The position numbers were made by a program, and so were the translations under genes. DNA of 64,000 nt, from assembly GCA_964036665.1 (NCBI GenBank), contig OZ038527.1:12741835-12805834 (forward strand), read 5' to 3'. The notes beneath the pieces were generated by a model. That model ran no database searches, was not told the DNA's origin, and saw only the letters and a list, made by a program, of their open reading frames with translations. The DNA is from Gordius sp. MW1 (lineage: Eukaryota > Nematomorpha > Gordioida > Gordea > Gordiidae). Within the stretch, counting starts at the first letter, position 1, and each line of letters starts with the position of its first letter. Positions 1 to 64,000 of this stretch are shown here, piece after piece.

Positions 1-2745
1 CAAATTAGAATAAGAAAACTATTAATTTGAAATCATGATCGCATAGAGCAGTTTGTAAAAATTAAGCACTCACGTTGCGATACAACAAACTAATCGCAAC
101 AATAAAACGTTGTATTTTGTCAAAATGATAGTTCTTGCAGCTTAAAACCTCTTATCGGAAGTCAATCGAGGATAATAGGATTCTCAAATTGGCTTACTTT
201 TATATATTTTTTCAAGCTCTTTCACATAGAATCGAAAAAAATAAATATTTTACCTCAAAATTTAACACATTTTTTTCTTTCAACCCTATTCATCCGATGA
301 AAGTTGTCGTTTTCAGACGTGGTTTCCATGACAAAAAGTAACAATTTATCAGAATAAGAAAACTATTAATTTGAAATCATGATCGCAGAGCAGTTTTCAA
401 AAATTAAACACTCACTTTGCGATACAACAAACTAATCGCAACAATAAAACGTTGTCTTTTGTCAAAATGATAGTTCTCGCAGCTTAAAACCTCTTTTCGG
501 AAGTCAATCGAGGATAATAGGATTCTCAAATTGGCTTACTTTTATATATTTTTTCAAGCTCTTTCACATAGAATCAAAAAAAATAAATATTACTACCTCA
601 AAATATTTCACATTTTTTTATTCAACCCTATTCATCCGATGAAAGTTGTCGTTTCAGACGTGGTTTCCATGATAAAAATAACAATTTATTAGAATAAGAA
701 AACTATTAATTTGAAATCATGATCGCATAGAACAGTTTTCAAAAATTAAGGACTCACGTTGCGATACAACAAACTAATCGCAACAATAAAACGTTGTCTT
801 TTGTCAAAATGATGGCTCTCGCAGCTTAAAACCTCTTTTCGGAAGTCAATCGAGGATAATAGGATTCTCAAATTGGCTTACTTTTATATATTTTTTCAAG
901 CTCTTTTCACATAGAATCGAAAAAAATAAATATTTTTACCTCAAAATATTTCACATTTTTTTATTCAACCCTATTCGTCCGATGAAAGTTGTCGTTTTCA
1001 GACGTGGTTTCCATGATAAAAAGTAAAAATTTATCAGAATCAGACAACTGTTACTTTAAAATCATCATCGCATATAGCAGTTTTCAAAAATTAAGCCCTC
1101 ACGTTGCGATACAACAAACTAATCGCAACAATAAAACGTTGTCTTTTGTCAAAATGATAGTTCTCGCAGCTTAAAACCTCTTTTCGGAAGTCAATCGAGG
1201 ATAATAGGATTCTCAAATTGGCTTACTTTTATATATTTTTTCAAGCTCTTTCACATAGAATCGAAAAAAATAAATATTACTACCTCAAAATATTTCACAT
1301 TTTTTTATTCAACCGTATTCATGCGATGAAAGTTGTCGTTTTCAGACGTTGTTTCCATGATAAAAAGTAACAATTTATCAGAATCAGAAAACTATTACTT
1401 TGAAATCATCATCGCATAGAGCAGTTTTCAAAGATTAAGCCCTCACGTTGCGATACAACAAACTAATCGCAACAATAAAACGTTTTCTTTTGTCAAAATG
1501 AAAGTTCGCGCAGCTTAAAACCTCTTTTCGGAAGTCAATCGAGGATAATAGGATTCTCAAATTGGCTTACTTTTATATATTTTTTCAAGCTCTTTCACAT
1601 AAAATCAAAAAAAATGAATATTTTTACCTCAAAATTTTTCACATTTTTTTATTTAACCGTATTCATCCGAAGAAAGTTGTCGTTTTCAGAGGTTGTTTCC
1701 ATGATAAAAAGTAAAAATTTATTAGAATCAGAAAACTGTTACTTTGAAATCATCATCGCATAGAGCAGTTTTCAAAAATTAATCACTCACGTTGCGATAC
1801 AACATACTAATCGCAACAATAAAACGTTGTATTTTGTCAAAATGATAGTTCTCGCAGCTTAAAACCTCTTATCGGAAGTCAATCGAGGATAATAGGATTC
1901 TCAAATTGGCTTACTTTTATATATTTTTTCAAGCTCTTTCACATAGAATCAAAAAAAAATAAATATTTTTACCTCAAAATATTTCACATTTTTTTATTCA
2001 ACCCTATTCGTCCGATGAAAGTTGTCGTTTCAGACGTGGTTTCCATGATAAAAAGTAACAATTTATTAGAATAAGAAAACTATTAATTTGAAATCATGAT
2101 CGCATAGAACAGTTTTCAAAAATTAAGGACTCACGTTGCGATACAACAAACTAATCGCAACAATAAAACGTTGTCTTTTGTCAAAATGATGGCTCTCGCA
2201 GCTTAAGACCTCTTTTCGGAAGTCAATCGAGGATAATAGGATTCTCAAATTGGCTTACTTTTATATATTTTTTCAAGCTCTTTCACATAGAATCGAAAAA
2301 AATAAATATTACTACCTCAAAATATTTCACATTTTTTATTCAACCGTATTCATCCGATGAAAGTTGTCGTTTTCAGACGTTGTTTCCATGATAAAAAGTA
2401 AAAATTTATTAGAATCAGAAAACTGTTACTTTGAAATCATCATCGCATAGAGCAGTTTTCAAAAATTAAGCCCTCACGTTGCGATACAACAAACTAATCG
2501 CAACAATAAAACGTTGTCTTTTGTCAAAATGATAGTTCTCGCAGCTTAAAACCTCTTTTCGGAAGTCAATCGAGGATAATAGGATTCTCAAATTGGCTTA
2601 CTTTTATATATTTTTTCAAGCTCTTTCACATAGAATCGAAAAATATAAATATTTTTACCTCAAAATTTTTCACATTTTTTTATTCAACCCTATTCGTACG
2701 ATGAAAGTTGTCGTTTTCAGACGTGGTTTCCATGATAAAAAATAA
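1..2745. repeat. Domain A canonical 8-mer unit (a1-a8)
   Basis: Eight distinguishable monomers. a1 has CAAATTAG and GTTCTTGCAG. a2 has GCAGAGCAG, CACTTTGCG and ATTACTACC. a3 has AGAACAG, AAGGACTC and GATGGCTC. a4 has AGACAACTG, CATATAGC and CATGCGATG. a5 has GTTTTCTTTTG, AAAGTTCGCG and CGAAGAAAG. a6 has AATCACTC and CAACATAC. a7 has AGAACAG again with CTTAAGACC. a8 has GAAAAATATAAAT and CGTACGATG. The same order recurs at 10,984-13,728 with an identical length. Confidence 0.9.
74..100. other. 8-bp inverted repeat (dyad) in the monomer, first copy
   Basis: GTTGCGAT at 74-81 and ATCGCAAC at 93-100 are exact reverse complements separated by 11 bp. The same dyad sits at the same monomer offset in most units of the window. 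Domain A keeps it everywhere, at least as a 7-bp match (the variant left arm is TTTGCGAT). Many monomers of domains B to E carry GTTTGAT instead of GTTGCGAT, which leaves only 3 paired bases. It could be a binding site for a dimeric DNA-binding protein or a small cruciform or hairpin. Neither is demonstrated, and a chance dyad in an ancestral monomer is possible. Confidence 0.6.
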
Positions 2746-4457
2746 CAAATTAGAATAAGAAAACTATTAATTTGAAATCATGATCGCATAGAGCAGTTTG
2801 TAAAAATTAAGCACTCACGTTGCGATACAACAAACTAATCGCAACAATAAAACGTTGTATTTTGTCAAAATGATAGTTCTTGCAGCTTAAAACCTCTTAT
2901 CGGAAGTCAATCGAGGATAATAGGATTCTCAAATTGGCTTACTTTTATATATTTTTTCAAGCTCTTTCACATAGAATCGAAAAAAATAAATATTACTACC
3001 TCAAAATATTTCACATTTTTTTATTCAACCCTATTCATCCGATGAAAGTTGTCGTTTCAGACGTGGTTTCCATGATAAAAAGTAACAATTTATTAGAATA
3101 AGAAAACTATTAATTTGAAATCATGATCGCATAGAACAGTTTTCAAAAATTAAGGACTCACGTTGCGATACAACAAACTAATCGCAACAATAAAACGTTG
3201 TCTTTTGTCAAAATGATGGCTCTCGCAGCTTAAAACCTCTTTTCGGAAGTCAATCGAGGATAATAGGATTCTCAAATTGGCTTACTTTTATATATTTTTT
3301 CAAGCTCTTTCACATAGAATCGAAAAAAATAAATATTTTACCTCGAAATTTAACACATTTTTTCTTTCAACCCTATTCATCCGATGAAAGTTGTCGTTTT
3401 CAGACGTGGTTTCCATGACAAAAAGTAACAATTTATCAGAATAAGAAACCTATTAATTTGAAATCATGATCGCAGAGCAGTTTTCAAAAATTAAGCACTC
3501 ACTTTGCGATACAACAAACTAATCGCAACAATAAAACGTTGTCTTTTGTCAAAATGATAGTTCTCGCAGCTTAAAACCTCTTTTCGGAAGTCAATCGAGG
3601 ATAATAGGATTCTCAAATTGGCTTACTTTTATATATTTTTTCAAGCTCTTTCACATAGAATCGAAAAAAATAAATATTACTACCTCAAAATATTTCACAT
3701 TTTTTTATTCAACCCTATTCATCCGATGAAAGTTGTCGTTTCAGACGTGGTTTCCATGATAAAAAGTAACAATTTATTAGAATAAGAAAACTATTAATTT
3801 GAAATCATGATCGCATAGAACAGTTTTCAAAAATTAAGGACTCACGTTGCGATACAACAAACTAATCGCAACAATAAAACGTTGTCTTTTGTCAAAATGA
3901 TGGCTCTCGCAGCTTAAAACCTCTTTTCGGAAGTCAATCGAGGATAATAGGATTCTCAAATTGGCTTACTTTTATATATTTTTTCAAGCTCTTTCACATA
4001 GAATCGAAAAAAATAAATATTACTACCTCAAAATATTTCACATTTTTTTATTCAACCGTATTCATCCGATGAAAGTTGTCGTTTTCAGACGTTGTTTCCA
4101 TGATAAAAAGTAAAAATTTATCAGAATCAGAAAACTGTTACTTTGAAATCATCATCGCATAGAGCAGTTTTCAAAAATTAAGCCCTCACGTTGCGATACA
4201 ACAAACTAATCGCAACAATAAAACGTTGTCTTTTGTCAAAATGATAGTTCTCGCAGCTTAAAACCTCTTTTCGGAAGTCAATCGAGGATAATAGGATTCT
4301 CAAATTGGCTTACTTTTATATATTTTTTCAAGCTCTTTCACATAGAATCGAAAAAAATAAATATTTTTACCTCAAAATTTTTCACATTTTTTTATTCAAC
4401 CCTATTCGTACGATGAAAGTTGTCGTTTTCAGACTTGGTTTCCATGATAAAAAATAA
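2746..4457. repeat. Domain A contracted unit, 5 monomers (1,712 bp)
   Basis: Starts with an a1-type monomer that ends like a2 (ATTACTACC at 2993-3001). It continues with an a3-type monomer ending like a1 (AATTTAACAC near 3350), an a2 copy with GCAGAGCAG (about 3471), an a3/a7-type monomer and a terminal a8 (CGTACGATG near 4407). Monomers a4-a6 are absent. At least two monomers are chimeras of neighbouring types, as expected from unequal exchange or conversion between registers. Confidence 0.82.
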
Positions 4458-7400
4458 CAAATTAGAATAAGAAAACTATTAATTTGCAATCATGATCGCA
4501 TAGAGCAGTTTGTAAAAATTAAGCACTCACGTTGCGATACAACAAACTAATCGCAACAATAAAACGTTGTATTTTGTCAAAATGATAGTTCTTGCAGCTT
4601 AAAACCTCTTATCGGAAGTCAATCGAGGATAATAGGATTCTCAAATTGGCTTACTTTTATATATTTTTTCAAGCTCTTTCACATAGAATCGAAAAAAATA
4701 AATATTTTTACCACAAAATTTTTCACATATTTTTCTTTCAACCGTATTCATCCGATGAAAGTTGTCGTTTTCAGACGTGGTTTCCATGATAAAAAGTAAC
4801 AATTTATCAGAATAAGAAAACTATTAATTTGAAATCATGATCGCATAGAACAGTTTTCAAAAATTAAGGACTCACGTTGCGATACAACAAACTAATCGCA
4901 ACAATAAAACGTTGTCTTTTGTCAAAATGATGGCTCTCGCAGCTTAAAACCTCTTTTCGGAAGTCAATCGAGGATAATAGGATTCTCAAATTGGCTTACT
5001 TTTATATATTTTTTTAAGCTCTTTCACATAGAATCGAAAAAAATAAATATTTTTACCTCAAAATATTTTACATTTTTTTATTCAACCCTATTCGTCCGAT
5101 GAAAGTTGTCGTTTTCAGACGTGGTTTCCATGATAAAAAGTAAAAATTTATCAGAATCAGAAAACTGTTACTTTAAAATCATCATCGCATATAGCAGTTT
5201 TCAAAAATTAAGCCCTCACGTTGCGATACAACAAACTAATCGCAACAATAAAACGTTGTCTTTTGTCAAAATGATAGTTCTCGCAGCTTAAAACCTCTTT
5301 TCGGAAGTCAATCGAGGATAATAGGATTCTCAAATTGGCTTACTTTTATATATTTTTTCAAGCTCTTTCACATAGAATCGAAAAAAATAAATATTACTAC
5401 CTCAAAATATTTCACATTTTTTTATTCAACCGTATTCATGCGATGAAAGTTGTCGTTTTCAGACGTTGTTTCCATGATAAAAAGTAACAATTTATCAGAA
5501 TCAGAAAACTATTACTTTGAAATCATCATCGCATAGAGCAGTTTTCAAAAATTAAGCCCTCACGTTGCGATACAACAAACTAATCGCAACAATAAAACGT
5601 TTTCTTTTGTCAAAATGAAAGTTCGCGCAGCTTAAAACCTCTTTTCGGAAGTCAATCGAGGATAATAGGATTCTCAAATTGGCTTACTTTTATATATTTT
5701 TTCAAGTTCTTTCACATAGAATCAAAAAAAATAAATATTTTTACCTCAAAATTTTTCACATTTTTTTATTTAACCGTATTCATCCGAAGAAAGTTGTCGT
5801 TTTCAGAGGTTGTTTCCATGATAAAAAGTAAAAATTTATCAGAATCAGAAAACTGTTACTTTGAAATCATCATCGCATAGAGCAGTTTTCAAAAATTAAT
5901 CACTCACGTTGCGATACAACATACTAATCGCAACAATAAAACGTTGTATTTTGTCAAAATGATAGTTCTCGCAGCTTAAAACCTCTTATCGGAAGTCAAT
6001 CGAGAATAATAGGATTCTCAAATTGGCTTACTTTTATATATTTTTTCAAGCTCTTTCACATAGAATCAAAAAAAATAAATATTTTTACCTCAAAATATTT
6101 CACATTTTTTTATTCAACCCTATTCGTCCGATGAAAGTTGTCGTTTCAGACATGGTTTCCATGATAAAAAGTAACAATTTATTAGAATAAGAAAACTATT
6201 AATATGAAATCATGATCGCATAGAACAGTTTTCAAAAATTAAGGACTCACGTTGCGATACAACAAACTAATCGCAACAATAAAACGTTGTCTTTTGTCAA
6301 AATGATGGCTCTCGCAGCTTAAAACCTCTTTTCGGAAGTCAATCGAGGATAATAGGATTCTCAAATTGGCTTACTTTTATATATTTTTTTAAGCTCTTTC
6401 ACATAGAATCGAAAAAAATAAATATTTTTACCTCAAAATATTTCACATTTTTTTATTCAACCCTATTCGTCCGATGAAAGTTGTCGTTTTCAGACGTGGT
6501 TTCCATGATAAAAAGTAAAAATTTATCAGAATCAGAAAACTGTTACTTTAAAATCATCATCGCATATAGCAGTTTTCAAAAATTAAGCCCTCACGTTGCG
6601 ATACAACAAACTAATCGCAACAATAAAACGTTGTCTTTTGTCAAAATGATAGTTCTCGCAGCTTAAAACCTCTTTTCGGAAGTCAATCGAGGATAATAGG
6701 ATTCTAAAATTGGCTTACTTTTATATATTTTTTCAAGCTCTTTCACATAGAATCGAAAAAAATAAATATTACTACCTCAAAATATTTCACATTTTTTTAT
6801 TCAACCGTATTCATGCGATGAAAGTTGTCGTTTTCAGACGTTGTTTCCATGATAAAAAGTAACAATTTATCAGAATCAGAAAACTATTACTTTGAAATCA
6901 TCATCGCATAGAGCAGTTTTCAAAAATTAAGCCCTCACGTTGCGATACAACAAACTAATCGCAACAATAAAACGTTTTCTTTTGTCAAAATGAAAGTTCG
7001 CGCAGCTTAAAACCTCTTTTCGGAAGTCAATCGAGGATAATAGGATTCTCAAATTGGCTTACTTTTATATATTTTTTCAAGTTCTTTCACATAGAATCAA
7101 AAAAAATAAATATTTTTACCTCAAAATTTTTCACATTTTTTTATTTAACCGTATTCATCCGAAGAAAGTTGTCGTTTTCAGAGGTTGTTTCCATGATAAA
7201 AAGTAAAAATTTATCAGAATCAGAAAACTGTTACTTTGAAATCATCATCGCATAGAGCAGTTTTCAAAAATTAATCACTCACGTTGCGATACAACATACT
7301 AATCGCAACAATAAAACGTTGTATTTTGTCAAAATGATAGTTCTCGCAGCTTAAAACCTCTTATCGGAAGTCAATCGAGAATAATAGGATTCTCAAATTG

Positions 7401-8235
7401 GCTTACTTTTATATATTTTTTCAAGCTCTTTCACATAGAATCAAAAAAAATAAATATTTTTACCTCAAAATATTTCACATTTTTTTATTCAACCCTATTC
7501 GTCCGATGAAAGTTGTCGTTTCAGACATGGTTTCCATGATAAAAAGTAACAATTTATTAGAATAAGAAAACTATTAATATGAAATCATGATCGCATAGAA
7601 CAGTTTTCAAAAATTAAGGACTCACGTTGCGATACAACAAACTAATCGCAACAATAAAACGTTGTCTTTTGTCAAAATGATGGCTCTCGCAGCTTAAGAC
7701 CTCTTTTCGGAAGTCAATCGAGGATAATAGGATTCTCAAATTGGCTTACTTTTATATATTTTTTCAAGCTCTTTCACATAGAATCGAAAAAAATAAATAT
7801 ACTAGCTCAAAATATTTCACATTTTTTATTCAACCGTATTCATCCGATGAAAGTTGTCGTTTTCAGACGTTGTTTCCATGATAAAAAGTAAAAATTTATT
7901 AGAATCAGAAAACTGTTACTTTGAAATCATCATCGCATAGAGCAGTTTTCAAAAATTAAGCCCTCACGTTGCGATACAACAAACTAATCGCAACAATAAA
8001 ACGTTGTCTTTTGTCAAAATGATAGTTCTCGCAGCTTAAAACCTCTTTTCGGAAGTCAATCGAGGATAATAGGATTCTCAAATTGGCTTACTTTTATATA
8101 TTTTTTCAAGCTCTTTCACATAGAATCGAAAAATATAAATATTTTTACCTCAAAATTTTTCACATTTTTTTATTCAACCCTATTCGTACGATGAAAGTTG
8201 TCGTTTTCAGACGTGGTTTCCATGATAAAAAATAA
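4458..8235. repeat. Domain A expanded unit, 11 monomers (3,778 bp)
   Basis: Order read from markers: a1, a3, a4, a5, a6, a3/a7, a4, a5, a6, a7, a8. The a2 monomer is missing and the a3-a4-a5-a6 block is present twice. With the preceding 5-mer it totals 5,490 bp, exactly two canonical 2,745-bp units, so the larger register of the array is preserved across the remodelled pair. Confidence 0.85.
4835..7584. repeat. Tandem duplication of a 4-monomer block, 1,375 bp each
   Basis: Positions about 4,835-6,209 and 6,210-7,584 match at a constant 1,375-bp offset. Shared private variants include AGACATGG at 6146 and 7521, and TTTTTTTAAGC near 5006 and 6381. Homology continues about 110 bp further, until CTTAAGACC at 7693. 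I saw only a couple of substitutions between the copies (TATTTTACA near 5064 versus TATTTCACA; CTAAAATTG near 6704 versus CTCAAATTG), so the duplication is young compared with the divergence of the monomers inside it. Confidence 0.87.
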
Positions 8236-10983
8236 CAAATTAGAATAAGAAAACTATTAATTTGAAATCATGATCGCATAGAGCAGTTTTCAAAAATTAA
8301 GCACTCACGTTGCGATACAACAAACTAATCGCAACAATAAAACGTTGTATTTTGTCAAAATGATAGTTCTTGCAGCTTAAAACCTCTTATCGGAAGTCAA
8401 TCGAGGATAATAGGATTCTCAAATTGGCTTACTTTTATATATTTTTTCAAGCTCTTTCACATAGAATCGAAAAAAATAAATATTTTACCTCAAAATTTAA
8501 CACATTTTTTTCTTTCAACCCTATTCATCCGATGAAAGTTGTCGTTTTCAGACGTGGTTTCCATGACAAAAAGTAACAATTTATCAGAATAAGAAAACTA
8601 TTAATTTGAAATCATGATCGCATAGAGCAGTTTTCAAAAATTAAACACTCACTTTGCGATACAACAAACTAATCGCAACAATAAAACGTTGTCTTTTGTC
8701 AAAATGATAGTTCTCGCAGCTTAAAACCTCTTTTCGGAAGTCAATCGAGGATAATAGGATTCTCAAATTGGCTTACTTTTATATATTTTTTCAAGCTCTT
8801 TCACATAGAATCAAAAAAAAATAAATATTACTACCTCAAAATATTTCACATTTTTTTATTCAACCCTATTCATCCGATGAAAGTTGTCGTTTCAGACGTG
8901 GTTTCCATGATAAAAATAACAATTTATCAGAATAAGAAAACTATTAATTTGAAATCATGATCGCATAGAGCAGTTTTCAAAAATTAAACACTCACTTTGC
9001 GATACAACAAACTAATCGCAACAATAAAACGTTGTCTTTTGTCAAAATGATAGTTCTCGCAGCTTAAAACCTCTTTTCGGAAGTCAATCGAGGATAATAG
9101 GATTCTCAAATTGGCTTACTTTTATATATTTTTTCAAGCTCTTTTCACATAGAATCGAAAAAAATAAATATTTTTACCTCAAAATATTTCACATTTTTTT
9201 ATTCAACCCTATTCGTCCGATGAAAGTTGTCGTTTTCAGACGTGGTTTCCATGATAAAAAGTAAAAATTTATCAGAATCAGACAACTGTTACTTTAAAAT
9301 CATCATCGCATATAGCAGTTTTCAAAAATTAAGCCCTCACGTTGCGATACAACAAACTAATCGCAACAATAAAACGTTGTCTTTTGTCAAAATGATAGTT
9401 CTCGCAGCTTAAAACCTCTTTTCGGAAGTCAATCGAGGATAATAGGATTCTCAAATTGGCTTACTTTTATATATTTTTTCAAGCTCTTTCACATAGAATC
9501 GAAAAAAATAAATATTACTACCTCAAAATATTTCACATTTTTTTATTCAACCGTATTCATGCGATGAAAGTTGTCGTTTTCAGACGTTGTTTCCATGATA
9601 AAAAGTAACAATTTATCAGAATCAGAAAACTATTACTTTGAAATCATCATCGCATAGAGCAGTTTTCAAAGATTAAGCCCTCACGTTGCGATACAACAAA
9701 CTAATCGCAACAATAAAACGTTTTCTTTTGTCAAAATGAAAGTTCGCGCAGCTTAAAACCTCTTTTCGGAAGTCAATCGAGGATAATAGGATTCTCAAAT
9801 TGGCTTACTTTTATATATTTTTTCAAGCTTTTTCACATAAAATCAAAAAAAATGAATATTTTTACCTCAAAATTTTTCACATTTTTTTATTTAACCGTAT
9901 TCATCCGAAGAAAGTTGTCGTTTTCAGAGGTTGTTTCCATGATAAAAAGTAAAAATTTATTAGAATCAGAAAACTGTTACTTTGAAATCATCATCGCATA
10001 GAGCAGTTTTCAAAAATTAATCACTCACGTTGCGATACAACATACTAATCGCAACAATAAAACGTTGTATTTTGTCAAAATGATAGTTCTCGCAGCTTAA
10101 AACCTCTTATCGGAAGTCAATCGAGGATAATAGGATTCTCAAATTGGCTTACTTTTATATATTTTTTCAAGCTCTTTCACATAGAATCAAAAAAAAATAA
10201 ATATTTTTACCTCAAAATATTTCACATTTTTTTATTCAACCCTATTCGTCCGATGAAAGTTGTCGTTTCAGACGTGGTTTCCATGATAAAAAGTAACAAT
10301 TTATTAGAATAAGAAAACTATTAATTTGAAATCATGATCGCATAGAACAGTTTTTAAAAATTAAGGACTCACGTTGCGATACAACAAACTAATCGCAACA
10401 ATAAAACGTTGTCTTTTGTCAAAATGATGGCTCTCGCAGCTTAAGACCTCTTTTCGGAAGTCAATCGAGGATAATAGGATTCTCAAATTGGCTTACTTTT
10501 ATATATTTTTTCAAGCTCTTTTACATAGAATCGAAAAAAATAAATATTACTACCTCAAAATATTTCACATTTTTTATTCAACCGTATTCATCCGATGAAA
10601 GTTGTCGTTTTCAGACGTTGTTTCCATGATAAAAAGTAAAAATTTATTAGAATCAGAAAACTGTTACTTTGAAATCATCATCGCATAGAGCAGTTTTCAA
10701 AAATTAAGCCCTCACGTTGCGATACAACAAACTAATCGCAACAATAAAACGTTGTCTTTTGTCAAAATGATAGTTCTCGCAGCTTAAAACCTCTTTTCGG
10801 AAGTCAATCGAGGATAATAGGATTCTCAAATTGGCTTACTTTTATATATTTTTTCAAGCTCTTTCACATAGAATCGAAAAATATAAATATTTTTACCTCA
10901 AAATTTTTCACATTTTTTTATTCAACCCTATTCGTACGATGAAAGTTGTCGTTTTCAGACGTGGTTTCCATGATAAAAAATAA
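8236..10983. repeat. Domain A 8-mer unit, variant (2,748 bp)
   Basis: Same order as the canonical unit, but the third monomer is chimeric. Its first half is a2-like (AAACACTCACTTTG near 8986 and GATAGTTCTCG near 9049) where a3 would read GGACTC and GATGGCTC. Its second half is a3-like (CTTTTCACATAG near 9140). Its a2 monomer has CATAGAGCAG, not GCAGAGCAG, and its a1 has CAGTTTTC, not CAGTTTGT. This looks like local conversion of a3 by a2. Confidence 0.83.
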
Positions 10984-13728: not shown

Positions 13729-14690
13729 CAAATTAGAATAAGAAAACTATTAATTTGAAATCATGATCGCATAGAGCAGTTTGTAAAAATTAAGCACTCA
13801 CGTTGCGATACAACAAACTAATCGCAACAATAAAACGTTGTATTTTGTCAAAATGATAGTTCTTGCAGCTTAAAACCTCTTATCGGAAGTCAATCGAGGA
13901 TAATAGGATTCTCAAATTGGCTTACTTTTATATATTTTTTTAAGCTCTTTCACATAGAATCGAAAAAAATAAATATTACTACCTCAAATTATTTCACATT
14001 TTTTTATTCAACCGTATTCATGCGATGAAAGTTGTCGTTTTCAGACGTTGTTTCCATGATAAAAAGTAACAATTTATCAGAATCAGAAAACTATTACTTT
14101 GAAATCATCATCGCATAGAGCAGTTTTCAAAAATTAAGCCCTCACGTTGCGATACAACAAACTAATCGCAACAATAAAACGTTTTCTTTTGTCAAAATGA
14201 TAGTTCGCGCAGCTTAAAACCTTTTTTCGGAAGTCAATCGAGGATAATAGGATTCTCAAATCGGCTTACTTTTATATATTTTTTCAAGTTCTTTCACATA
14301 GAATCAAAAAAAATAAATATTTTTACCTCAAAATATTTCACATTTTTTTATTCAACCCTATTCGTCCGATGAAAGTTGTCGTTTTCAGACGTGGTTTTCA
14401 TGATAAAAAGTAAAAATTTATCAGAATCAGAAAACTGTTACTTTGAAATCATCATCGCATATAGCAGTTTTCAAAAATTAAGCCCTCACGTTGCGATACA
14501 ACAAACTAATCGCAACAATAAAACGTTGTCTTTTGTCAAAATGATAGTTCTCGCAGCTTAAAACCTTTTTTCGGAAGTCAATCGAGGATAATAGGATTCT
14601 CAAATTGGCTTACTTTTATATATTTTTTCAAGCTCTTTCACATAGAATCGAAAAAAATAAATATTACTACCTCAAAATTTTTCACATTTT
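13729..14690. repeat. Transition from domain A to domain B
   Basis: A ninth a1-type monomer starts at 13,729 but switches near 13,940-14,030 to an a4-like end (TTTTTTTAAGC, CATGCGATG). Next come an a5-like monomer with GTTTTCTTTTG but without the GAAGAAAG variant, and an a4-like monomer (CATATAGC near 14,458). From about 14,690 onward the monomers carry domain-B features (GTTGACG, ATCATGATCGC, GCAATTTTC). No foreign DNA lies at the boundary; the switch happens inside monomers. Confidence 0.78.
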
Positions 14691-31075: not shown

Positions 31076-31294
31076 TTTATATATTTTTTCAAGCTCTTTC
31101 ACATAGAATCGAAAAAAATAAATATTTTACCTCAAAATTTAACACATTTTTTTCTTTCAACCCTATTCATCCGATGAAAGTTGTCGTTTTCAGACGTGGT
31201 TTCCATGACAAAAAGTAACAATTTATCAGAATAAGAAAACTATTAATTTGAAATCATGATCGCATAGAGCAGTTTTCAAAAATTAAGCACTCAC

Positions 31295-53000: not shown

Positions 53001-54878
53001 TATATGATAAAAAGTAAAAAGTAAAAATTTATCAGAATCAGAAAATTATTACTTTGAAATCATGATCGCATAGAGCAGTTTTCAAAAATTAAAAACTCAC
53101 GTTGCGATACAACAAACTAATCGCAACAATAAAACGTTGTCTTTTGTCAAAATGATAGTTCGCAGCTTAAAACCTCTTTTCGGAAGTCAATCGAGGATAA
53201 TAGGATTCTCAAATTGGCTTATTTTTATATATTTTTTCAAGCTCTTTCACATAGAATCGAAAAAAATAAATATTTTTACCTCAAAATTTTTCACATTTTT
53301 TTATTCAACCGTATTCATCCGATGAAAGTTGTCGTTTTCAGACGTTGTTTCCATGATAAAAAGTAAAAATTTATCAGAATCAGAAAACTATTACTTTGAA
53401 ATCATGATCGCATAGAGCAATTTTCAAAAATTAAGCACTCACGTTGCGATACAACAAACTAATCGCAACAATAAAATGTTGTCTTTTGTCAAAATGATAG
53501 TTCTCGCAGCTTAAAACCTCTTTTCGGAAGTCAATCGAGGATAATAGGATTCTCAAATTGGCTTATTTTTATATATTTTTTTACGCTCTTTCACATAGAA
53601 TCGAAAAAAATGAATATATTTACCTCAAAATTTTTTACATTTTTTTATTCAACCGTATTCATCCGATGAAAGTTGACGTTTTCAGACGTTGTTTCCATGA
53701 TAAAAAGTAAAAATTTATCAGAATCAGAAAACTATTACTTTGAAATCATGATCGCATAGAGCAATTTTCAAAAATTAAGCACTTGTGATACAACAAACTA
53801 ATCGCAACAATAAAACGTTGTCTTTTGTCAAAATGATAGTTCTCGCAGCTTAAAACCTCTTTTCGGAAGTCAATCCAGGATAATAGGATTCTCAAGTTGG
53901 CTTATTTTTATTTATTTTTTTACACTCTTTCACATAGAATCGAAAAAAATGAATATTTTTACCTCAAAATTTTTCACATTTTTTTATTCAACCGTATTCA
54001 TCCGATGAAAGTTGTCGTTTTCAGACGTTGTTTCCATGATAAAAAGTAAAAATTTATCAGAATCAGAAAACTATTACTTTGAAATCATGATTGCATAGAG
54101 CAGTTTTCAAAAATTAAGCACTCGCGTTTGATACAACAAACTAATCGCAACAATAAAAATTTGTCTTTTGTCAAAATGATAGTTCTCGCAGCTTAAAACC
54201 TCTTTTCGGAAGTCAATCGAGGATAATAAGATTCTCAAATCGGCTTACTTTTATATATTTTTTCAAGCTCTTTCACATAGAATCGAAAAAAATGAATATT
54301 TTTACCTCAAAACTTTTCACATTTTTTTATTCAACCGTATTCATCCGATGAAAGTTGTCGTTTTCAGACGTTGTTTCCATGATAAAAAGTAAAAATTTAT
54401 CAGAATCAGAAAACTATTACTTTGAAATCATGATCGCATAGAGCAATTTTCAAAAATTAAGCACTCACGTTGCGATACAAAAAACTAATCGCAACAATAA
54501 AACGTTGTCTTTTGTCAAAATGATAGTTCTCGCAGCTTAAAACCTCTTTTCGGAAGTCAATCCAGGATAATAGGATTCTCAAATTGGCTTATTTTTATAT
54601 ATTTTTTTAAGCTCTTTCACATAGAATCGAAAAAAATAAATATTTTTACCTCAAAATTTTTCACATTTTTTTATTCAACCGTATTCATCCGATGAAAGTT
54701 GACGTTTTCAGACGTTGTTTCCATGATAAAAAGCAAAAATTTATCAGAATCAGAAAACTATTACTTTGAAATCATGATCGCATAGAGCAATTTTCAAAAA
54801 TTAAGCACTCACGTTTGATACAAAAAACTAATCGCAACAATAAAACGTTGTCTTTTGTCAAAATGATAGTTCTCGCAG
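50064..54878. repeat. 7-mer HOR, two units of ~2,408 bp
   Basis: Anchors 50064, 50408, 50758, 51102, 51445, 51787 and 52130 are followed by 52472, 52816, 53166, 53510, 53849, 54192 and 54536. The first four monomers (the 342-344-350-344 cassette) match closely. The last three diverge: 53,785 has ACTTGTGATAC (5 bp lost, removing the left dyad arm) and 54,154 has AAAATTTGTC. CATTTATTTC near 50,192 and TTTCAAGTTTTTTTC near 50,532 occur in the first unit and not the second. Confidence 0.8.
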
Positions 54879-55680
54879 CTTAAAACCTCTTTTCGGAAGT
54901 CAATCCAGGATAATAGTATTCTCAAATTGGCTTATTTTTATATATTTTTTTACGCTCTTTCACATAGAATCGAAAAAAATGAATATTTTTACCTCAAAAT
55001 TTTTCACATTTTTTTCTTTCAACCGTATTCATCCGATGAAAGTTGTCGTTTTCAGACGTTGTTTCCATGATAAAGAGTAAAAATTTATCAGAATCAGAAA
55101 ACTATTACTTTGAAATCATGATCGCATAGAGCAGTCTTCAAAAATTAAGCACTCACGTTTGATACAACAAACTAATCGCAACAATAAAACTTTGTCTTTT
55201 GTCAAAATGATAGTTGTCGCAGCTTAAAACCTCTTTTCGGAAGTCAATCGAGGATAATAAGATTCTCAAATCGGCTTACTTTTATATATTTTTTCAAGCT
55301 CTTTCACATAGAATCGAAAAATATAAATATTTTTACCTCAAAATTTTTCACATTTTTTTCTTTCAACCGTATTCATCCGATAAAAGTTGTCGTTTTCAGA
55401 CGTGGTTTATATGATAAAAAGTAAAAAGTAAAAATTTATCAGAATCAGAAAATTATTACTTTGAAATCATGATCGCATAGAGCTGTTTTCAAAAATTAAA
55501 AACTCACGTTGCGATACAACAAACTAATCGCAACAATAAAACGTTGTCTTTTGTCAAAATGATAGTTCGCAGCTTAAAACCTCTTTTCGGAAGTCAATCG
55601 AGGATAATAGGATTCTCAAATTGGCTTATTTTTATATATTTTTTCAAGCTCTTTCACATAGAATCGAAAAAAATAAATAT

Positions 55681-58600
55681 TTTTACCTCAAAATTTTTCA
55701 CATTTTTTTATTCAACCGTATTCATCCGATGAAAGTTGTCGTTTTCAGACGTTGTTTCCATGATAAAAAGTAAAAATTTATCAGAATCAGAAAACTATTA
55801 CTTTGAAATCATGATCGCATAGAGCAATTTTCAAAAATTAAGCACTCACGTTGCGATACAACAAACTAATCGCAACAATAAAATGTTGTCTTTTGTCAAA
55901 ATTATAGTTCTCGCAGCTTATAACCTCTTTTCGGAAGTCAATCCAGGATAATAGGATTCTCAAATTGGCTTATTTTTATATATTTTTTTACGCTTTTTCA
56001 CATAGAATCGAAAAAAATAAATATTTTTACCTCAAAATTTTTCACATTTTTTTATTCAACCGTATTCATCCGATGGTTTTCAGACGTTGTTTCCATGATA
56101 AAAAGTAAAAATTTATCAGAATCAGAAAACTATTACTTTGAAATCATGATCGCATAGAGCAATTTTCAAAAATTAAGCACTCACGTTGCGATACAACAAA
56201 CTAATCGCAACAATAAAACGTTGTCTTTTGTCAAAATTATAGTTCTCGCAGCTTAAAACCTCTTTTCGGAAGTCAATCCAGGATAATAGGATTCTCAAAT
56301 TGGCTTATTTTTATATATTTTTTTACGCTTTTTCACATAGAATCGAAAAAAATGAATATTTTTACCTCAAAAATTTTCACATTTTTTTATTCAACCGTAT
56401 TCATCCGATGAAAGTTGTCGTTTTCAGACGTTGTTTCCATGATAAAAAGTAAAAATTTATCAGAATCAGAAAACTATTACTTTGAAATCATGATTGCATA
56501 GAGCAGTTTTCATAAATTAAGCACTCACGTTTGATACAACAAGCTAATCGCAACAATAAAACGTTGTCTTTTGTCAAAATGATAGTTCTCGCAGCTTAAA
56601 ACCTCTTTTCGGAAGTCAATCCATAATAATAGGATTCTCAAATTGGCTTTATATTTTTTTACGCTTTTTCACATAGAATCGAAAAAAATGAATTTTTTTA
56701 CCTCAAAATTTTTCACATTTTTTTATTCAACCGTATTCATCCGATGAAAGTTGTCGTTTTCAGACGTTGTTTCCATGATAAAAAGTAAAAATTTATCAGA
56801 ATCAGAAAACTATTACTTTGAAATCATGATTGCATAGAGCAGTTTTCAAAAATTAAGCACTCACGTTTGATACAACAAACTAATCGCAACAATAAAACGT
56901 TGTGTTTTGTCAAAATGATAGTTCTCGCAGCTTAAAACCTCTTTTCGGAAGTCAATCGAAGATAATAGGATTCTCAAATTGGCTTATTTTTATATATTTT
57001 TTCAAGCTCTTTCACATAGAATCGAAAAAAATAAATATTTTTACCTCAAAATTTTTCACATTTTTTTATTCAACCGTATTCATCCGATGAAAGTTGTCGT
57101 TTTCAGACGTTATTTCCATGATAAAAAGTAAAAATTTATCAGAATCAGAAAACTATTACTTTGAAACCATGATCGCATAGAGCAATTTTCAAAAATTAAG
57201 CACTCACGTTGCGATACAACAAACTAATCGCAACAATAAAACGTTGTCTTTTGTCAAAATTATAGTTCTCGCAGCTTAAAACCTCTCTTCGGAGGTCAAT
57301 CCAGGATAATAGGATTCTCAAATTGGCTTATTTTTATATATTTTTTTACGCTTTTTCACATAGAATCGAAAAAAATGAATATTTTTACCTCAAAATTTTT
57401 CACATTTTTTTATTCAACCGTATTCATCCGATGAAAGATGTCGTTTTCAGACGTTGTTTCCATGATAAAAAGTAAAAATTTATCAGAATCAGAAAACTAT
57501 TACTTTGAAATCATGATTGCATAGAGCAGTTTTCATAAATTAAGCACTCACGTTTGATACAACAAACTAATCGCAACAATAAAACTTTGTCTTTTGTCAA
57601 AATGATAGTTGTCGCAGCTTAAAACCTCTTTTCGGAAGTCAATCGAGGATAATAAGATTCTCAAATCGGCTTACTTTTATATATTTTTTCAAGCTCTTTC
57701 ACATAGAATCGAAAAATATAAATATTTTTACCTCAAAATTTTTCACATTTTTTTCTTTCAACCGTATTCATCCGATAAAAGTTGTCGTTTTCAGACGTGG
57801 TTTATATGATAAAAAGTAAAAAGTAAAAATTTATCAGAATCAGAAAATTATTACTTTGAAATGATGATCGCATAGAGCAGTTTTCAAAAATTAAAAACTC
57901 ACGTTGCGATACAACAAACTAATCGCAACAATAAAACGTTGTCTTTTGTCAAAATGATAGTTCTCGCAGCTTAAAACCTCTTTTCGGAAGTCAATCGAGG
58001 ATAATAGGATTCTCAAATTGGCTTATTTTTATATATTTTTATACGCTCTTTCACATAGAATCGAAAAAAATGAATATTTTTACCTCAAAATTTTTCACAT
58101 TTTTTCAACCGTATTCATCCGATGAAAGTTGTCGTTTTCAGACGTTGTTTCCATGATAAAAAGTAAAAATTTATCAGAATCAGAAAACTATTACTTTGAA
58201 ATCATGATTGCATAGAGCAGTTTTCAAAAATTAAGCACTCACGTTTGATACAACAAACTAATCGCAACAATAAAACGTTGTCTTTTGTCAAAATGATAGT
58301 TCTCGCAGCTTAAAACCTCTTTTCGGAAGTCAATCGAGGATAATAGGATTCTCAAATTGGCTTATTTTTATATATTTTTTTACGCTCTTTCACATAGAAT
58401 CGAAAAAAATGAATATTTTTAACTCAAAATTTTTCACATTTTTTTATTCAACCGTATTCATCCGATTAAAGTTGACGTTTTCAGACGTTGTTTCCATGAT
58501 AAAAAGTAAAAATTTATCAGAATCAGAAAACTATTAATTTGAAATCATGATTGCCTAGAGCAGTTTTCAAAAATTAAACACTCGCGTTTGATACAACAAA

Positions 58601-61166
58601 CTAATCGCAACAATAAAACTTTGTCTTTTGTCAAAAGATAGTTCTCGCAGCTTAAAACCTCTTTTCGGAAGTCAATCCAGGATAATAGGATTCTCAAATT
58701 GGCTTATTTTTATATATTTTTTTACGCTCTTTCACATAGAATCGAAAAAAATGAATTTTTTTACCTCAAAATTTTTCACATTTTTTTATTCAACCGTATT
58801 CATCCGATGAAAGTTGTCGTTTTCAGACGTTGTTTCCATGATAAAAAGTAAAAATTTATCAGAATCAGAAAACTATTACTTTGAAATCATGATTGCATAG
58901 AGCAGTTTTCAAAAATTAAGCACTCACGTTTGATACAACAAACTAATCGCAACAATAAAACGTTGTCTTTTGTCAAAATGATAGTTCTCGCAGCTTAAAA
59001 CCTCTTTTCGGAAGTCAATCGAGGATAATAGGATTCTCAAATTGGCTTATTTTTATATATTTTTTTACGCTCTTTCACATAGAATCGAAAAAAATGAATA
59101 TTTTTACCTCAAAATTTTTCACATTTTTTTATTCAACCGTATTCATCCGATGAAAGTTGACGTTTTCAGACGTTGTTTCCATGATAAAAAGTAAAAATTT
59201 ATCAGAATCAGAAAACTATTAATTTGAAATCATGATTGCATAGAGCAGTTTTCAAAAATTAAACACTCGCGTTTGATACAACAAACTAATCGCAACAATA
59301 AAACTTTGTCTTTTGTCAAAAGATAGTTCTCGCAGCTTAAAACCTCTTTTCGGAAGTCAATCGAGGATAATAAGATTCTCAAATCGGCTTACTTTTATAT
59401 ATTTTTTCAAGCTCTTTCACATAGAATCGAAAAAAATAAATATTTTTACCTCAAAATTTTTCACATTTATTTCTTTCAACCGTAGTCATCCGATGAAAGT
59501 TGTCGTTTTCACACGTTGTTTCCATGATAAAGAGTAAAAATTTATCAAAATCAGAAAACTATTACTTTGAAATCATGATCGCATAGAGCAGTCTTCAAAA
59601 ATTAAGCACTCACGTTTGATACAACAAACTAATCGCAACAATAAAACTTTGTCTTTTGTCAAAATGATAGTTGTCGCAGCTTAAAACCTCTTTTCGGAAG
59701 TCAATCGAGGATAATAAGATTCTCAAATCGGCTTACTTTTATATATTTTTTCAAGCTCTTTCACATAGAATCGAAAAATATAAATATTTTTACCTCAAAA
59801 TTTTTCAAGTTTTTTTCTTTCAACCGTATTCATCCGATAAAAGTTGTCGTTTTCAGACGTGGTTTATATGATAAAAAGTAAAAAGTAAAAATTTATCAGA
59901 ATCAGAAAATTATTACTTTGAAATCATGATCGCATAGAGCAGTTTTCAAAAATTAAAAACTCACGTTGCGATACAACAAACTAATCGCAACAATAAAACG
60001 TTGTCTTTTGTCAAAATGATAGTTCGCAGCTTAAAACCTCTTTTCGGAAGTCAATCGAGGATAATAGGATTCTCAAATTGGCTTATTTTTATATATTTTT
60101 TCAAGCTCTTTCACATAGAATCGAAAAAAATAAATATTTTTACCTCAAAATTTTTCACATTTTTTTATTCAACCGTATTCATCCGATGAAAGTTGTCGTT
60201 TTCAGACGTTGTTTCCATGATAAAAAGTAAAAATTTATCAGAATCAGAAAACTATTACTTTGAAATCATGATCGCATAGAGCAATTTTCAAAAATTAAGC
60301 ACTCACGTTGCGATACAACAAACTAATCGCAACAATAAAACGTTGTCTTTTGTCAAAATGATAGTTCTCGCAGCTTAAAACCTCTTTTCGGAAGTCAATC
60401 CAGGATAATAGGATTCTCAAATTGGCTTATTTTTATATATTTTTTTACGCTCTTTCACATAGAATCGAAAAAAATGAATTTTTTTACCTCAAAATTTTTC
60501 ACATTTTTTTATTCAACCGTATTCATCCGATGAAAGTTGTCGTTTTCAGACGTTGTTTCCATGATAAAAAGTAAAAATTTATCAGAATCAGAAAACTATT
60601 ACTTTGAAATCATGATTGCATAGAGCAGTTTTCAAAAATTAAGCACTCACGTTTGATACAACAAACTAATCGCAACAATAAAACGTTGTCTTTTGTCAAA
60701 ATGATAGTTCTCGCAGCTTAAAACCTCTTTTCGGAAGTCAATCGAGGATAATAGGATTCTCAAATTGGCTTATTTTTATATATTTTTTTACGCTCTTTCA
60801 CATAGAATCGAAAAAAATGAATATTTTTAACTCAAAATTTTTCACATTTTTTTATTCAACCGTATTCATCCGATTAAAGTTGACGTTTTCAGACGTTGTT
60901 TCCATGATAAAAAGTAAAAATTTATCAGAATCAGAAAACTATTAATTTGAAATCATGATTGCCTAGAGCAGTTTTCAAAAATTAAACACTCGCGTTTGAT
61001 ACAACAAACTAATCGCAACAATAAAACTTTGTCTTTTGTCAAAAGATAGTTCTCGCAGCTTAAAACCTCTTTTCGGAAGTCAATCCAGGATAATAGGATT
61101 CTCAAATTGGCTTATTTTTATATATTTTTTTACGCTCTTTCACATAGAATCGAAAAAAATGAATTT
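55681..61166. repeat. 16-mer HOR unit (5,486 bp), complete copy
   Basis: Anchors 55917, 56252, 56595, 56931, 57275, 57618, 57970, 58309, 58651, 58994, 59336, 59680, 60030, 60374, 60717, 61059. The first half recurs at +5,486 bp with these private markers: CTTATAACC (55917), a 9-bp deletion giving CGATGGTTTTC (56071), CAAAAATTTTCAC, the 7-bp deletion (56,643), GTTATTTCC (57,106), CTCTTCGGAGG (57,283), GAAAGATGTCG (57,431) and GAAATGATGATCG (57,859). The second half is assembled from blocks also seen at 50.1-53.5 kb. Confidence 0.88.
58105..60335. repeat. Block copied from 51.2-53.5 kb (offset 6,864 bp)
   Basis: Anchors 58309, 58651, 58994, 59336, 59680 and 60030 correspond to 51445, 51787, 52130, 52472, 52816 and 53166. 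Shared private markers: TTTTTAACTC, CGATTAAAGTTG (ATTAAAG at 51601 and 58465), GATTGCCTAGAGC and the CTATTAATTTG near 52,352 and 59,216. From about 59,460 the copy matches 50.1 kb instead (CATTTATTTC, TTTCAAGTTTT; offset 9,272), so a template switch lies between about 59,217 and 59,463. Private changes near 59,484-59,515 (GTAGTCATCC, CACACGTTG) are unique. Confidence 0.82.
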
Positions 61167-61300
61167 TTTTACCTCAAAATTTTTCACATTTTTTTATTCA
61201 ACCGTATTCATCCGATGAAAGTTGTCGTTTTCAGACGTTGTTTCCATGATAAAAAGTAAAAATTTATCAGAATCAGAAAACTATTACTTTGAAATCATGA
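59463..61300. repeat. Block copied from 50.2-52.0 kb (offset 9,272 bp)
   Basis: Anchors 59680, 60030, 60374, 60717 and 61059 map to 50408, 50758, 51102, 51445 and 51787. Both copies carry CATTTATTTC, TTTCAAGTTTTTTTC, GAATTTTTTTACC and TTTTTAACTC. A difference is TTTTCATATAT near 51,160 versus TTTTTATATAT. The right end overlaps the start of the second 16-mer. Confidence 0.8.
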
Positions 61301-64000
61301 TCGCATAGAGCAATTTTCAAAAATTAAGCACTCACGTTGCGATACAACAAACTAATCGCAACAATAAAATGTTGTCTTTTGTCAAAATTATAGTTCTCGC
61401 AGCTTATAACCTCTTTTCGGAAGTCAATCCAGGATAATAGGATTCTCAAATTGGCTTATTTTTATATATTTTTTTACGCTTTTTCACATAGAATCGAAAA
61501 AAATAAATATTTTTACCTCAAAATTTTTCACATTTTTTTATTCAACCGTATTCATCCGATGGTTTTCAGACGTTGTTTCCATGATAAAAAGTAAAAATTT
61601 ATCAGAATCAGAAAACTATTACTTTGAAATCATGATCGCATAGAGCAATTTTCAAAAATTAAGCACTCACGTTGCGATACAACAAACTAATCGCAACAAT
61701 AAAACGTTGTCTTTTGTCAAAATTATAGTTCTCGCAGCTTAAAACCTCTTTTCGGAAGTCAATCCAGGATAATAGGATTCTCAAATTGGCTTATTTTTAT
61801 ATATTTTTTTACGCTTTTTCACATAGAATCGAAAAAAATGAATATTTTTACCTCAAAAATTTTCACATTTTTTTATTCAACCGTATTCATCCGATGAAAG
61901 TTGTCGTTTTCAGACGTTGTTTCCATGATAAAAAGTAAAAATTTATCAGAATCAGAAAACTATTACTTTGAAATCATGATTGCATAGAGCAGTTTTCATA
62001 AATTAAGCACTCACGTTTGATACAACAAGCTAATCGCAACAATAAAACGTTGTCTTTTGTCAAAATGATAGTTCTCGCAGCTTAAAACCTCTTTTCGGAA
62101 GTCAATCCATAATAATAGGATTCTCAAATTGGCTTTATATTTTTTTACGCTTTTTCACATAGAATCGAAAAAAATGAATTTTTTTACCTCAAAATTTTTC
62201 ACATTTTTTTATTCAACCGTATTCATCCGATGAAAGTTGTCGTTTTCAGACGTTGTTTCCATGATAAAAAGTAAAAATTTATCAGAATCAGAAAACTATT
62301 ACTTTGAAATCATGATTGCATAGAGCAGTTTTCAAAAATTAAGCACTCACGTTTGATACAACAAACTAATCGCAACAATAAAACGTTGTGTTTTGTCAAA
62401 ATGATAGTTCTCGCAGCTTAAAACCTCTTTTCGGAAGTCAATCGAAGATAATAGGATTCTCAAATTGGCTTATTTTTATATATTTTTTCAAGCTCTTTCA
62501 CATAGAATCGAAAAAAATAAATATTTTTACCTCAAAATTTTTCACATTTTTTTATTCAACCGTATTCATCCGATGAAAGTTGTCGTTTTCAGACGTTATT
62601 TCCATGATAAAAAGTAAAAATTTATCAGAATCAGAAAACTATTACTTTGAAACCATGATCGCATAGAGCAATTTTCAAAAATTAAGCACTCACGTTGCGA
62701 TACAACAAACTAATCGCAACAATAAAACGTTGTCTTTTGTCAAAATTATAGTTCTCGCAGCTTAAAACCTCTCTTCGGAGGTCAATCCAGGATAATAGGA
62801 TTCTCAAATTGGCTTATTTTTATATATTTTTTTACGCTTTTTCACATAGAATCGAAAAAAATGAATATTTTTACCTCAAAATTTTTCACATTTTTTTATT
62901 CAACCGTATTCATCCGATGAAAGATGTCGTTTTCAGACGTTGTTTCCATGATAAAAAGTAAAAATTTATCAGAATCAGAAAACTATTACTTTGAAATCAT
63001 GATTGCATAGAGCAGTTTTCATAAATTAAGCACTCACGTTTGATACAACAAACTAATCGCAACAATAAAACTTTGTCTTTTGTCAAAATGATAGTTGTCG
63101 CAGCTTAAAACCTCTTTTCGGAAGTCAATCGAGGATAATAAGATTCTCAAATCGGCTTACTTTTATATATTTTTTCAAGCTCTTTCACATAGAATCGAAA
63201 AATATAAATATTTTTACCTCAAAATTTTTCACATTTTTTTCTTTCAACCGTATTCATCCGATAAAAGTTGTCGTTTTCAGACGTGGTTTATATGATAAAA
63301 AGTAAAAAGTAAAAATTTATCAGAATCAGAAAATTATTACTTTGAAATGATGATCGCATAGAGCAGTTTTCAAAAATTAAAAACTCACGTTGCGATACAA
63401 CAAACTAATCGCAACAATAAAACGTTGTCTTTTGTCAAAATGATAGTTCTCGCAGCTTAAAACCTCTTTTCGGAAGTCAATCGAGGATAATAGGATTCTC
63501 AAATTGGCTTATTTTTATATATTTTTATACGCTCTTTCACATAGAATCGAAAAAAATGAATATTTTTACCTCAAAATTTTTCACATTTTTTCAACCGTAT
63601 TCATCCGATGAAAGTTGTCGTTTTCAGACGTTGTTTCCATGATAAAAAGTAAAAATTTATCAGAATCAGAAAACTATTACTTTGAAATCATGATTGCATA
63701 GAGCAGTTTTCAAAAATTAAGCACTCACGTTTGATACAACAAACTAATCGCAACAATAAAACGTTGTCTTTTGTCAAAATGATAGTTCTCGCAGCTTAAA
63801 ACCTCTTTTCGGAAGTCAATCGAGGATAATAGGATTCTCAAATTGGCTTATTTTTATATATTTTTTTACGCTCTTTCACATAGAATCGAAAAAAATGAAT
63901 ATTTTTAACTCAAAATTTTTCACATTTTTTTATTCAACCGTATTCATCCGATTAAAGTTGACGTTTTCAGACGTTGTTTCCATGATAAAAAGTAAAAATT
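61167..64000. repeat. 16-mer HOR unit, second copy, cut by window edge
   Basis: Anchors 61403, 61738, 62081, 62417, 62761, 63104, 63456, 63795. It matches 55,681-58,514 over 2,834 bp; reading marker by marker I found no difference. The match is still in progress at base 64,000, so the 5,486-bp unit probably continues to the right. Confidence 0.88.

What the first reader, a model, noticed from the sequence alone, without database searches (positions are those of the whole stretch)
1..64000. Several HOR regimes of one satellite family in one uninterrupted array
Within 64 kb the same ~343-bp monomer is organised as an 8-mer (2,745 bp), a 4-mer (~1,370), a 12-mer (4,122) containing a dimer (688), a different 12-mer (~4,111), a 7-mer (2,408) and a 16-mer (5,486). 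Most satellite arrays are dominated by one HOR over long spans, so the closely packed regime changes suggest an array edge or a site of repeated turnover. The periods come from exact marker offsets read in the sequence; the interpretation is inference.
Basis: partly seen in the sequence, partly recalled or inferred. Interest (0 to 1): 0.75.

Follow-up and report, generated by a model that had tools for sequence, protein, structure and literature searches.

The report
Locally shuffled centromere-type satellite array
The window is a stretch of a very abundant 344-base tandem repeat in an animal genome, in which small groups of repeats have been copied side by side many times; this is real, but it is how many centromere-type repeats evolve.

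Summary
The window is one uninterrupted, single-orientation 344-bp satellite (186 monomer pieces), in which blocks recur at the stated offsets. They are not long HOR regimes. Of 42 tandem higher-order chains called in 314 kb (window plus flanks), 37 have two copies, 4 have three and 1 has four. The 16-mer is one exact two-copy duplication in a 7-mer stretch. The mosaic is not an edge effect: nine overlapping tiles of the 314 kb have similar density.

Turnover is local. Three markers picked from single blocks have no genome copies elsewhere. A broader variant has 44 of 44 hits on C1. A subtype seen on other chromosomes has 26,043 exact copies, 1 on C1 and outside the array. The family was sampled on 8 of 8 large contigs.

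A neutral duplication/deletion simulation reproduces locality and low copy number, not the block-length spectrum: multiples of four make up 18 of 42 chains, above all 24 runs.

Best reading: a centromeric or pericentromeric satellite with local, chromosome-confined turnover, a new member of a known kind. CENP-A was not testable; species not identified.

The parts
7..64000 (+). 344-bp satellite array, 186 monomer pieces, all one orientation, no insertion; continues beyond both ends of the window
   Evidence: TRF; nhmmer tiling and monomer alignment; flanks
7..13734 (+). 8-mer (about 2,745 bp) domain; from about 1.4 kb on it lies in the second copy of a 40-mer (13.7 kb) duplication whose first copy begins near -12,347
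4809..7558 (+). 4-mer (1,375 bp) in two copies, 99.8% identical, nested in the 8-mer domain
17850..26093 (+). 12-mer (4,122 bp) in two copies (17850-21971 and 21972-26093), with a dimer (688 bp) pattern in its right part
   Evidence: a 48-bp marker chosen from it has 2 of 2 genome hits here
33291..39792 (+). second 12-mer (4,111 bp), partial: seven monomers 33291-35678 match 37402-39792 at 99.7%
   Evidence: a 48-bp marker chosen from this domain has 4 of 4 genome hits in the window
45633..45804 (+). truncated monomer (consensus 2-110 joined to 281-344), about 170 bp lost; moves the phase by half a repeat
49589..64000 (+). 7-mer (about 2,408 bp) stretch, continuing to the right of the window
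   Evidence: run of four monomers at offset 7; three-copy chain from 63322; recurring length variant at 2,394-2,408-bp spacings
55680..64000 (+). 16-mer (5,486 bp) exact tandem duplication, two copies, running past the window end
   Evidence: exact match of 55680-61301 to +5486; a marker from it has 2 of 2 genome hits, one in the window and one in the right flank

Best explanation
This is part of a multi-megabase centromeric or pericentromeric satellite block. It turns over by frequent local, in-register tandem duplications and deletions of a few to a few tens of monomers, such as unequal sister exchange or break-induced replication with out-of-register restart. Each new event overlays older ones, so successive short stretches carry different, mostly two-copy higher-order periods. 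Shown: the mosaic, its locality, its extent over 314 kb, variants private to C1, and samples of the family on all eight large contigs. Inferred: the recombination mechanism and the centromeric role.
For: Of 42 higher-order chains in 314 kb, 37 have two copies, 4 three, 1 four. Nine overlapping tiles have similar density. Median nearest-neighbour distance is 11 monomers against 165 permuted. Markers picked as confined to one block of the 314 kb have 4/4, 2/2 and 2/2 genome hits there. One broader variant has 44 of 44 hits on C1 between 11.28 and 14.09 Mb. A 24-base subtype word seen in samples from C2, C3, C5 and C7 has 26,043 exact genome copies, 1 on C1 and outside the array, judged from a list that runs in contig order. 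Random tandem duplication and deletion gives mostly two-copy chains, median identity 0.93-0.95 and nearest-neighbour distance 6-19. The family was hit on 8 of 8 large contigs.
Against: The simulation does not match in three respects. It gave 56-111 chains against 42. It was 89-99% two-copy against 88%. Its chains were mostly of short period, while the observed ones are 7 of 42 at periods 2-3 and 18 of 42 at multiples of four, above all 24 simulated runs (4-28%). Real events are therefore not geometrically distributed in length, or are not independent; the multiples-of-four test was made after seeing the data. No CENP-A, methylation or read data exist here. Exact duplications could in part be assembly errors. 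On C4 the satellite was hit only at 3.5 of 24.1 Mb (1 of 20 samples), so a mid-chromosome position does not hold there.
Confidence: 0.8

Rival explanations
1. The window sits at an array edge or a special turnover hotspot, and that is why several HORs are packed together.
For: The right end of the same-strand block is only 69-79 kb from the window end.
Against: Similar density of runs is found over the whole 314 kb, including tiles over 200 kb from the right end. Per 20-kb tile, identity to the consensus is nearly flat, 0.956-0.971 (lowest in the rightmost tile), as is nearest-neighbour identity, 0.991-0.999.
Confidence: 0.07
2. Assembly artefact: the exact duplications, above all the 5,622-bp exact match, come from misassembled reads.
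For: A perfect two-copy repeat at the 16-mer is what an assembly error would also produce. Reads are not available.
Against: All but one of the 42 colinear runs listed differ at some sites (mean identity 98.5-99.96%; the 16-mer run is 100%), and they nest at several scales. C1, C2 and C3 read telomere repeats 1 kb from their starts and the 314 kb hold no N, as expected of a good assembly.
Confidence: 0.08
3. A functional HOR system under selection, in which block lengths set the spacing of a bound protein, as CENP-B boxes do in alpha satellite.
For: The stretch at consensus 76-94 is about 99% conserved and, with 68-75, forms an 8-bp inverted repeat with an 11-base gap. Some block lengths recur at separate places (4 at seven places, 7 at six, 8 and 12 at four each), and multiples of four are over-represented (18 of 42).
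Against: The left arm of the inverted repeat is among the least conserved 8-bp stretches (6th percentile). Part of the excess of multiples of four comes from one nested domain around the window's left end, so the places are not independent.
Confidence: 0.06

Closest known systems
Brachypodium CentBd/CentBs centromeric satellites (PMC10910784, passages read)
   Same: Local homogenisation; almost no identical monomers shared between chromosomes; HOR block sizes highly variable with a negative exponential distribution; a private variant library per chromosome.
   Different: Plant, different sequence; CENH3 was mapped there, not here.
Arabidopsis CEN178 arrays (described in PMC11579429, passages read)
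   Same: Many variants private to single chromosomes; signs of local homogenisation.
   Different: Plant; the name implies a 178-bp monomer; population data exist there.
Human alpha satellite HOR arrays (PMC8997354, passages read)
   Same: Tandem monomers grouped into HORs; chromosome-specific HORs; mixed HOR subtypes (4, 7, 8 and 11 monomers) in one layer of centromere 8.
   Different: Within a human HOR monomers are about 50-70% identical and units are nearly identical; here monomers are about 94% identical and units mostly occur twice.
Unequal-exchange model (Smith 1976) and break-induced-replication model, as summarised in PMC8997354 and PMC11579429 (passages; the original papers not seen)
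   Same: Both predict local duplications, deletions and nested HORs.
   Different: The data here do not decide between the two.

Membership tests
Satellite DNA (tandem array) | Head-to-tail copies of one monomer over long spans | tested here: met
   186 copies in the window, 916 pieces in 314 kb
Higher-order repeat array (alpha-satellite type) | Long runs of many near-identical multimeric units | tested here: not met
   37 of 42 chains have two copies, maximum four; without the margin filter 38 of 44, maximum five. Only 314 kb tested
Locally homogenised centromeric satellite (Arabidopsis/Brachypodium type) | Variable-length, low-copy HOR blocks with nearest relatives close by | tested here: met
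Locally homogenised centromeric satellite (Arabidopsis/Brachypodium type) | Variants private to one chromosome | tested here: met
   44 of 44 hits of one variant on C1; other subtype word 1 of 26,043 on C1. Two words tested
Centromeric satellite | Present on every chromosome | tested here: met
   8 of 8 large contigs by short samples; C4, C5 and C6 by one sample each, C6 at the threshold
Centromeric satellite | Bound by CENP-A / CENH3 | not testable with these tools
   needs ChIP-seq or CUT&RUN

The most novel reading that the evidence does not exclude
One chromosome's centromere-type array (C1) has been replaced by its own subfamily and has stayed sealed off from the subtype used by several other chromosomes (none of 26,043 exact copies of a subtype word inside the C1 array), while local duplication, perhaps with a preference for blocks of four monomers, keeps rewriting it. 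If the arrays are the centromeres, each chromosome would carry a sequence identity tag.
Probability: 0.3. Interest if true: 0.4.

Novelty: new member of a known kind. Interest (0 to 1): 0.22.

Why it matters
It gives a gap-free example, in an unidentified animal, of satellite turnover by overlapping two-copy duplications. The family is abundant (about 14% of the genome by a rough extrapolation) and C1 carries private variants, so duplication size and rate could be measured. It does not change the general picture, which is already described for plant and human centromeres.

Tried and rejected
Array-edge reading: rejected because tiles across 314 kb look alike.

Half-monomer ancestry (344 = 2 x 172, prompted by the half-length piece at 45633): half against half aligns no better than shuffled sequence (score -4.0; 40 shuffles, mean -5.25, s.d. 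6.1).

Conserved inverted repeat as a protein site: only the loop and one arm are conserved; left as a weak lead.

Purely random duplication and deletion with geometric lengths: reproduces locality and low copy number but not the number or the lengths of the chains. One search held nine earlier runs, six of them at clearly lower identity (0.69-0.85) and three at 0.90-0.91, with 29-84 chains. The mutation rate was set by hand, not fitted.

Species identification: five of the ten paper searches looked for genome size, chromosome number, mitochondrial length, and bryozoan or nematode genome notes; listings only, no matching assembly seen. The satellite itself: searches found no paper on it (one search listed one paper, on New World monkey alpha satellite). 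That it is not in print rests on these two searches alone. General HOR searches.

Selection effects: the markers were chosen as confined to one block of the 314 kb, so only their absence from the rest of the genome is a result. The marker was chosen from 39 candidate 48-mers (15 printed) required to occur in the window and both flanks. In one search only the first 100 of 3,276 hits are visible, all on C1, so that C1 type cannot be said to be absent elsewhere. The sample threshold (15 of 39 words) was set after seeing the samples; the highest non-hit among the 50-base samples had 6.

Gene conversion, break-induced replication and unequal exchange were not separated.
Full report
What is there. 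The window lies at C1:12741835-12805834 of a 211.8-Mb, 12-contig assembly. It is wholly a 344-bp, 29-31% GC satellite in one orientation. 200 kb to the left and 50 kb to the right hold nothing but the same satellite on the same strand, with no N. Profile tiling gave 918 hits; the 916 covering at least 100 consensus positions were kept and 2 shorter ones dropped, and 186 of them lie in the window. Median pairwise identity is 93.9% over the 314 kb and 94.2% in the window. No gap between monomer hits exceeds 13 bp.

Checking the periods. Two are weaker than stated: the second 12-mer holds at 98% for a run of only 7 of its 12 monomers, and the 7-mer for 4 of 7 inside the window, with a full three-copy chain beginning at 63322 and lying mostly beyond it. 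The window has 42 colinear runs of at least three monomers at 98% identity or more, against a mean of 0.35 and a maximum of 2 in 20 order shuffles. The 16-mer is exact: 55680-61301 equals the sequence 5,486 bp further on, over 5,622 bases.

What the regimes are. I called tandem chains over periods 2 to 59 in 314 kb, asking for 98.5% mean identity over the whole unit and a margin of 1.5 points over neighbouring offsets. That gives 42 chains (by coincidence the same number as the runs above): 37 with two copies, 4 with three, 1 with four. Without the margin there are 44, of which 38 have two copies and one has five. A regime here is nearly always one duplication. They nest: the 4-mer sits in the 8-mer domain, most of which lies in the second copy of a 40-mer; the dimer pattern sits in the first 12-mer; and the 16-mer sits in the 7-mer stretch, whose length-variant marker recurs at 2,394-2,408-bp spacings from about 50.6 to 75 kb in window coordinates, interrupted by spacings of 2,062, 3,424 and 2,062 bp around the 16-mer.

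Is the window special? No. Nine overlapping tiles of 180 or 186 monomers along the 314 kb have 61-78% of monomers in runs of four or more, at many offsets. Some lengths recur at separate places: 4 at seven, 7 at six, 2 at five, 8 and 12 at four each. Identity to the consensus per 20-kb tile is 0.956-0.971. The same-strand block starts between 12,450,099 (minus strand) and 12,453,060 (plus strand) and ends between 12,875,049 and 12,885,000; that it is continuous outside the fetched 12,541,835-12,855,834 is inferred. Samples at 12.0, 12.3, 12.45, 13.3, 14.0, 14.2 and 14.4 Mb are the satellite in minus orientation, 11.5 Mb is plus, 11.2, 12.885, 12.9, 13.1 and 14.7 Mb are not the satellite, 13.0 Mb looks like a distant relative and 11.245 Mb like a diverged copy. 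So C1 has a block from about 11.25 to at least 14.4 Mb with strand switches and breaks.

Do monomers sort by domain? Partly. I set five domains (the finding gives no domain coordinates), leaving out 9 monomers between domains and the truncated one. For the remaining 176 the nearest neighbour is in the same domain for 75%, against 19% with permuted labels: 0.99 for the 8-mer, 1.00 for the first 12-mer, 0.66 for the second 12-mer, 0.47 for the 7-mer and 0.65 for the 16-mer. Twelve colinear blocks cross between the last three domains.

How local is it? Over 916 pieces the nearest relative is a median of 11 monomers away, against 165 when positions are permuted. Three 48-base markers picked as confined to one block have no further genome copy: 4 of 4, 2 of 2 and 2 of 2 hits lie in the window or its immediate right flank. 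A variant present in window and flanks has 44 genome hits, all on C1 between 11.28 and 14.09 Mb, on both strands. A 24-base word of a subtype noticed in samples from C2, C3, C5 and C7 has 26,043 exact genome hits; the visible part of the list, which runs in contig order, shows 1 on C1, at 17.79 Mb outside the block, and then C2. Near-matches were not counted.

How much of the genome? A conserved 35-mer occurs 41,899 times, a floor of about 14.4 Mb if each marks one monomer. Here 448 of 916 monomers carry it exactly, which gives about 29 Mb or 14% of the genome; the share ranges from 24% to 78% between stretches of the 314 kb, so this is rough. Taking 15 or more of 39 12-mers shared as a hit in 50-base samples, hits were C2 2 of 10, C3 2 of 10, C4 1 of 20, C5 1 of 8, C6 1 of 8, C7 2 of 6, C8 2 of 11, C9 0 of 2, C10 0 of 1, C11 0 of 1; one hit on C3 and the only one on C6 are at the threshold of 15. 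With C1 that is 8 of the 8 large contigs (21-37 Mb). On seven of them the hits fall between about 34% and 59% of the length; on C4 the hit is at 15%.

Mechanism. I simulated random tandem duplication and deletion with point mutation at mean block length of about 6, 9, 12 or 20 monomers. In 16 runs median identity was 0.933-0.951, nearest-neighbour distance 6-19, and there were 56-111 chains, 89-99% of them two-copy; observed are 0.939, 11, and 42 chains, 88% two-copy. In 24 runs (those settings with more seeds) a period of 2 or 3 was the commonest in every run and multiples of four made up 4-28%; observed are 7 of 42 at period 2-3 and 18 of 42 (43%) at multiples of four. So local random turnover explains the locality and the low copy number, but not the sizes: short duplications are rarer, and multiples of four commoner, than a geometric model gives. 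The second point was tested after the fact and the chains are not independent. Unequal sister exchange and break-induced replication would both produce such blocks; the review passages read describe both, and say that flanking haplotype linkage in Arabidopsis and human argues against meiotic crossover as a general mechanism. Nothing here separates them.

Comparison with the known. Passages of PMC10910784 describe the same combination in Brachypodium: local homogenisation, chromosome-private variants and highly variable HOR block sizes. Passages of PMC11579429 report chromosome-private variants and homogenisation of CEN178 in Arabidopsis. Human arrays differ in having many near-identical units, although one layer of centromere 8 mixes HORs of 4, 7, 8 and 11 monomers (PMC8997354, passages).

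Organism. COX1 on the 14,798-base contig C12 reads through with the invertebrate mitochondrial code, and C1, C2 and C3 show CCCTAA repeats near their starts. That it is an animal is my inference from these. The species was not identified; this does not affect the verdict.

Verdict. Observation confirmed, interpretation partly supported, ordinary in kind.

Noticed in passing
314 kb around the window, chains: Block lengths that are multiples of four make up 18 of 42 chains (43%), against 4-28% in 24 simulated runs, and lengths 2-3 are scarce. Found after the fact; partly one nested domain.
   Followed up: partly
L038 (C1 13.0 Mb) and L108 (C6 15.0 Mb): A second repeat shared between chromosomes; the C1 sample contains a stretch resembling consensus 20-43 of the 344-bp monomer, so it may be a distant relative of the family.
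   Followed up: no
L048 (C1 19.0 Mb), L057 (C2 7.5 Mb), L089 (C6 11.5 Mb), L113 (C8 19.0 Mb): Another dispersed repeat with TGACCATTGGCCAAAATGTGAATC or a close variant, on either strand, seen in 4 samples.
   Followed up: no
L084 (C5 12.5 Mb) and L093 (C7 10.0 Mb): Two 50-base samples on different chromosomes are near-perfect reverse complements of each other: a further interspersed repeat.
   Followed up: no
C8:2829490-2830827, and C1, C3, C4, C5, C8: Many nuclear copies of mitochondrial COX1: 23 of 24 matching pieces are outside contig C12, one nearly full length on C8, and pieces with equal scores on C4 in opposite orientations near 0.36-0.38 and 1.46-1.49 Mb.
   Followed up: no
window 36704-63310 and right flank: A length variant at the monomer end (13-bp gap in the consensus match) recurs in the 7-mer stretch; in the window it is not seen left of 36.7 kb, though it occurs in the left flank.
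   Followed up: partly
window 45633-45804: A monomer with about 170 bp deleted, close to half the repeat, the only break of that size in the 314 kb tiling; the halves themselves are not homologous.
   Followed up: yes
consensus positions 68-94 (for example window 74-100): 8-bp inverted repeat GTTGCGAT-11-ATCGCAAC; loop and right arm about 99% conserved, left arm 92.6%.
   Followed up: partly
C1:11821155-11844837 (minus strand): Hits of the variant recur at 4,111-4,112 bp, suggesting a 12-mer of the same length as the window's second 12-mer but far away and inverted.
   Followed up: no
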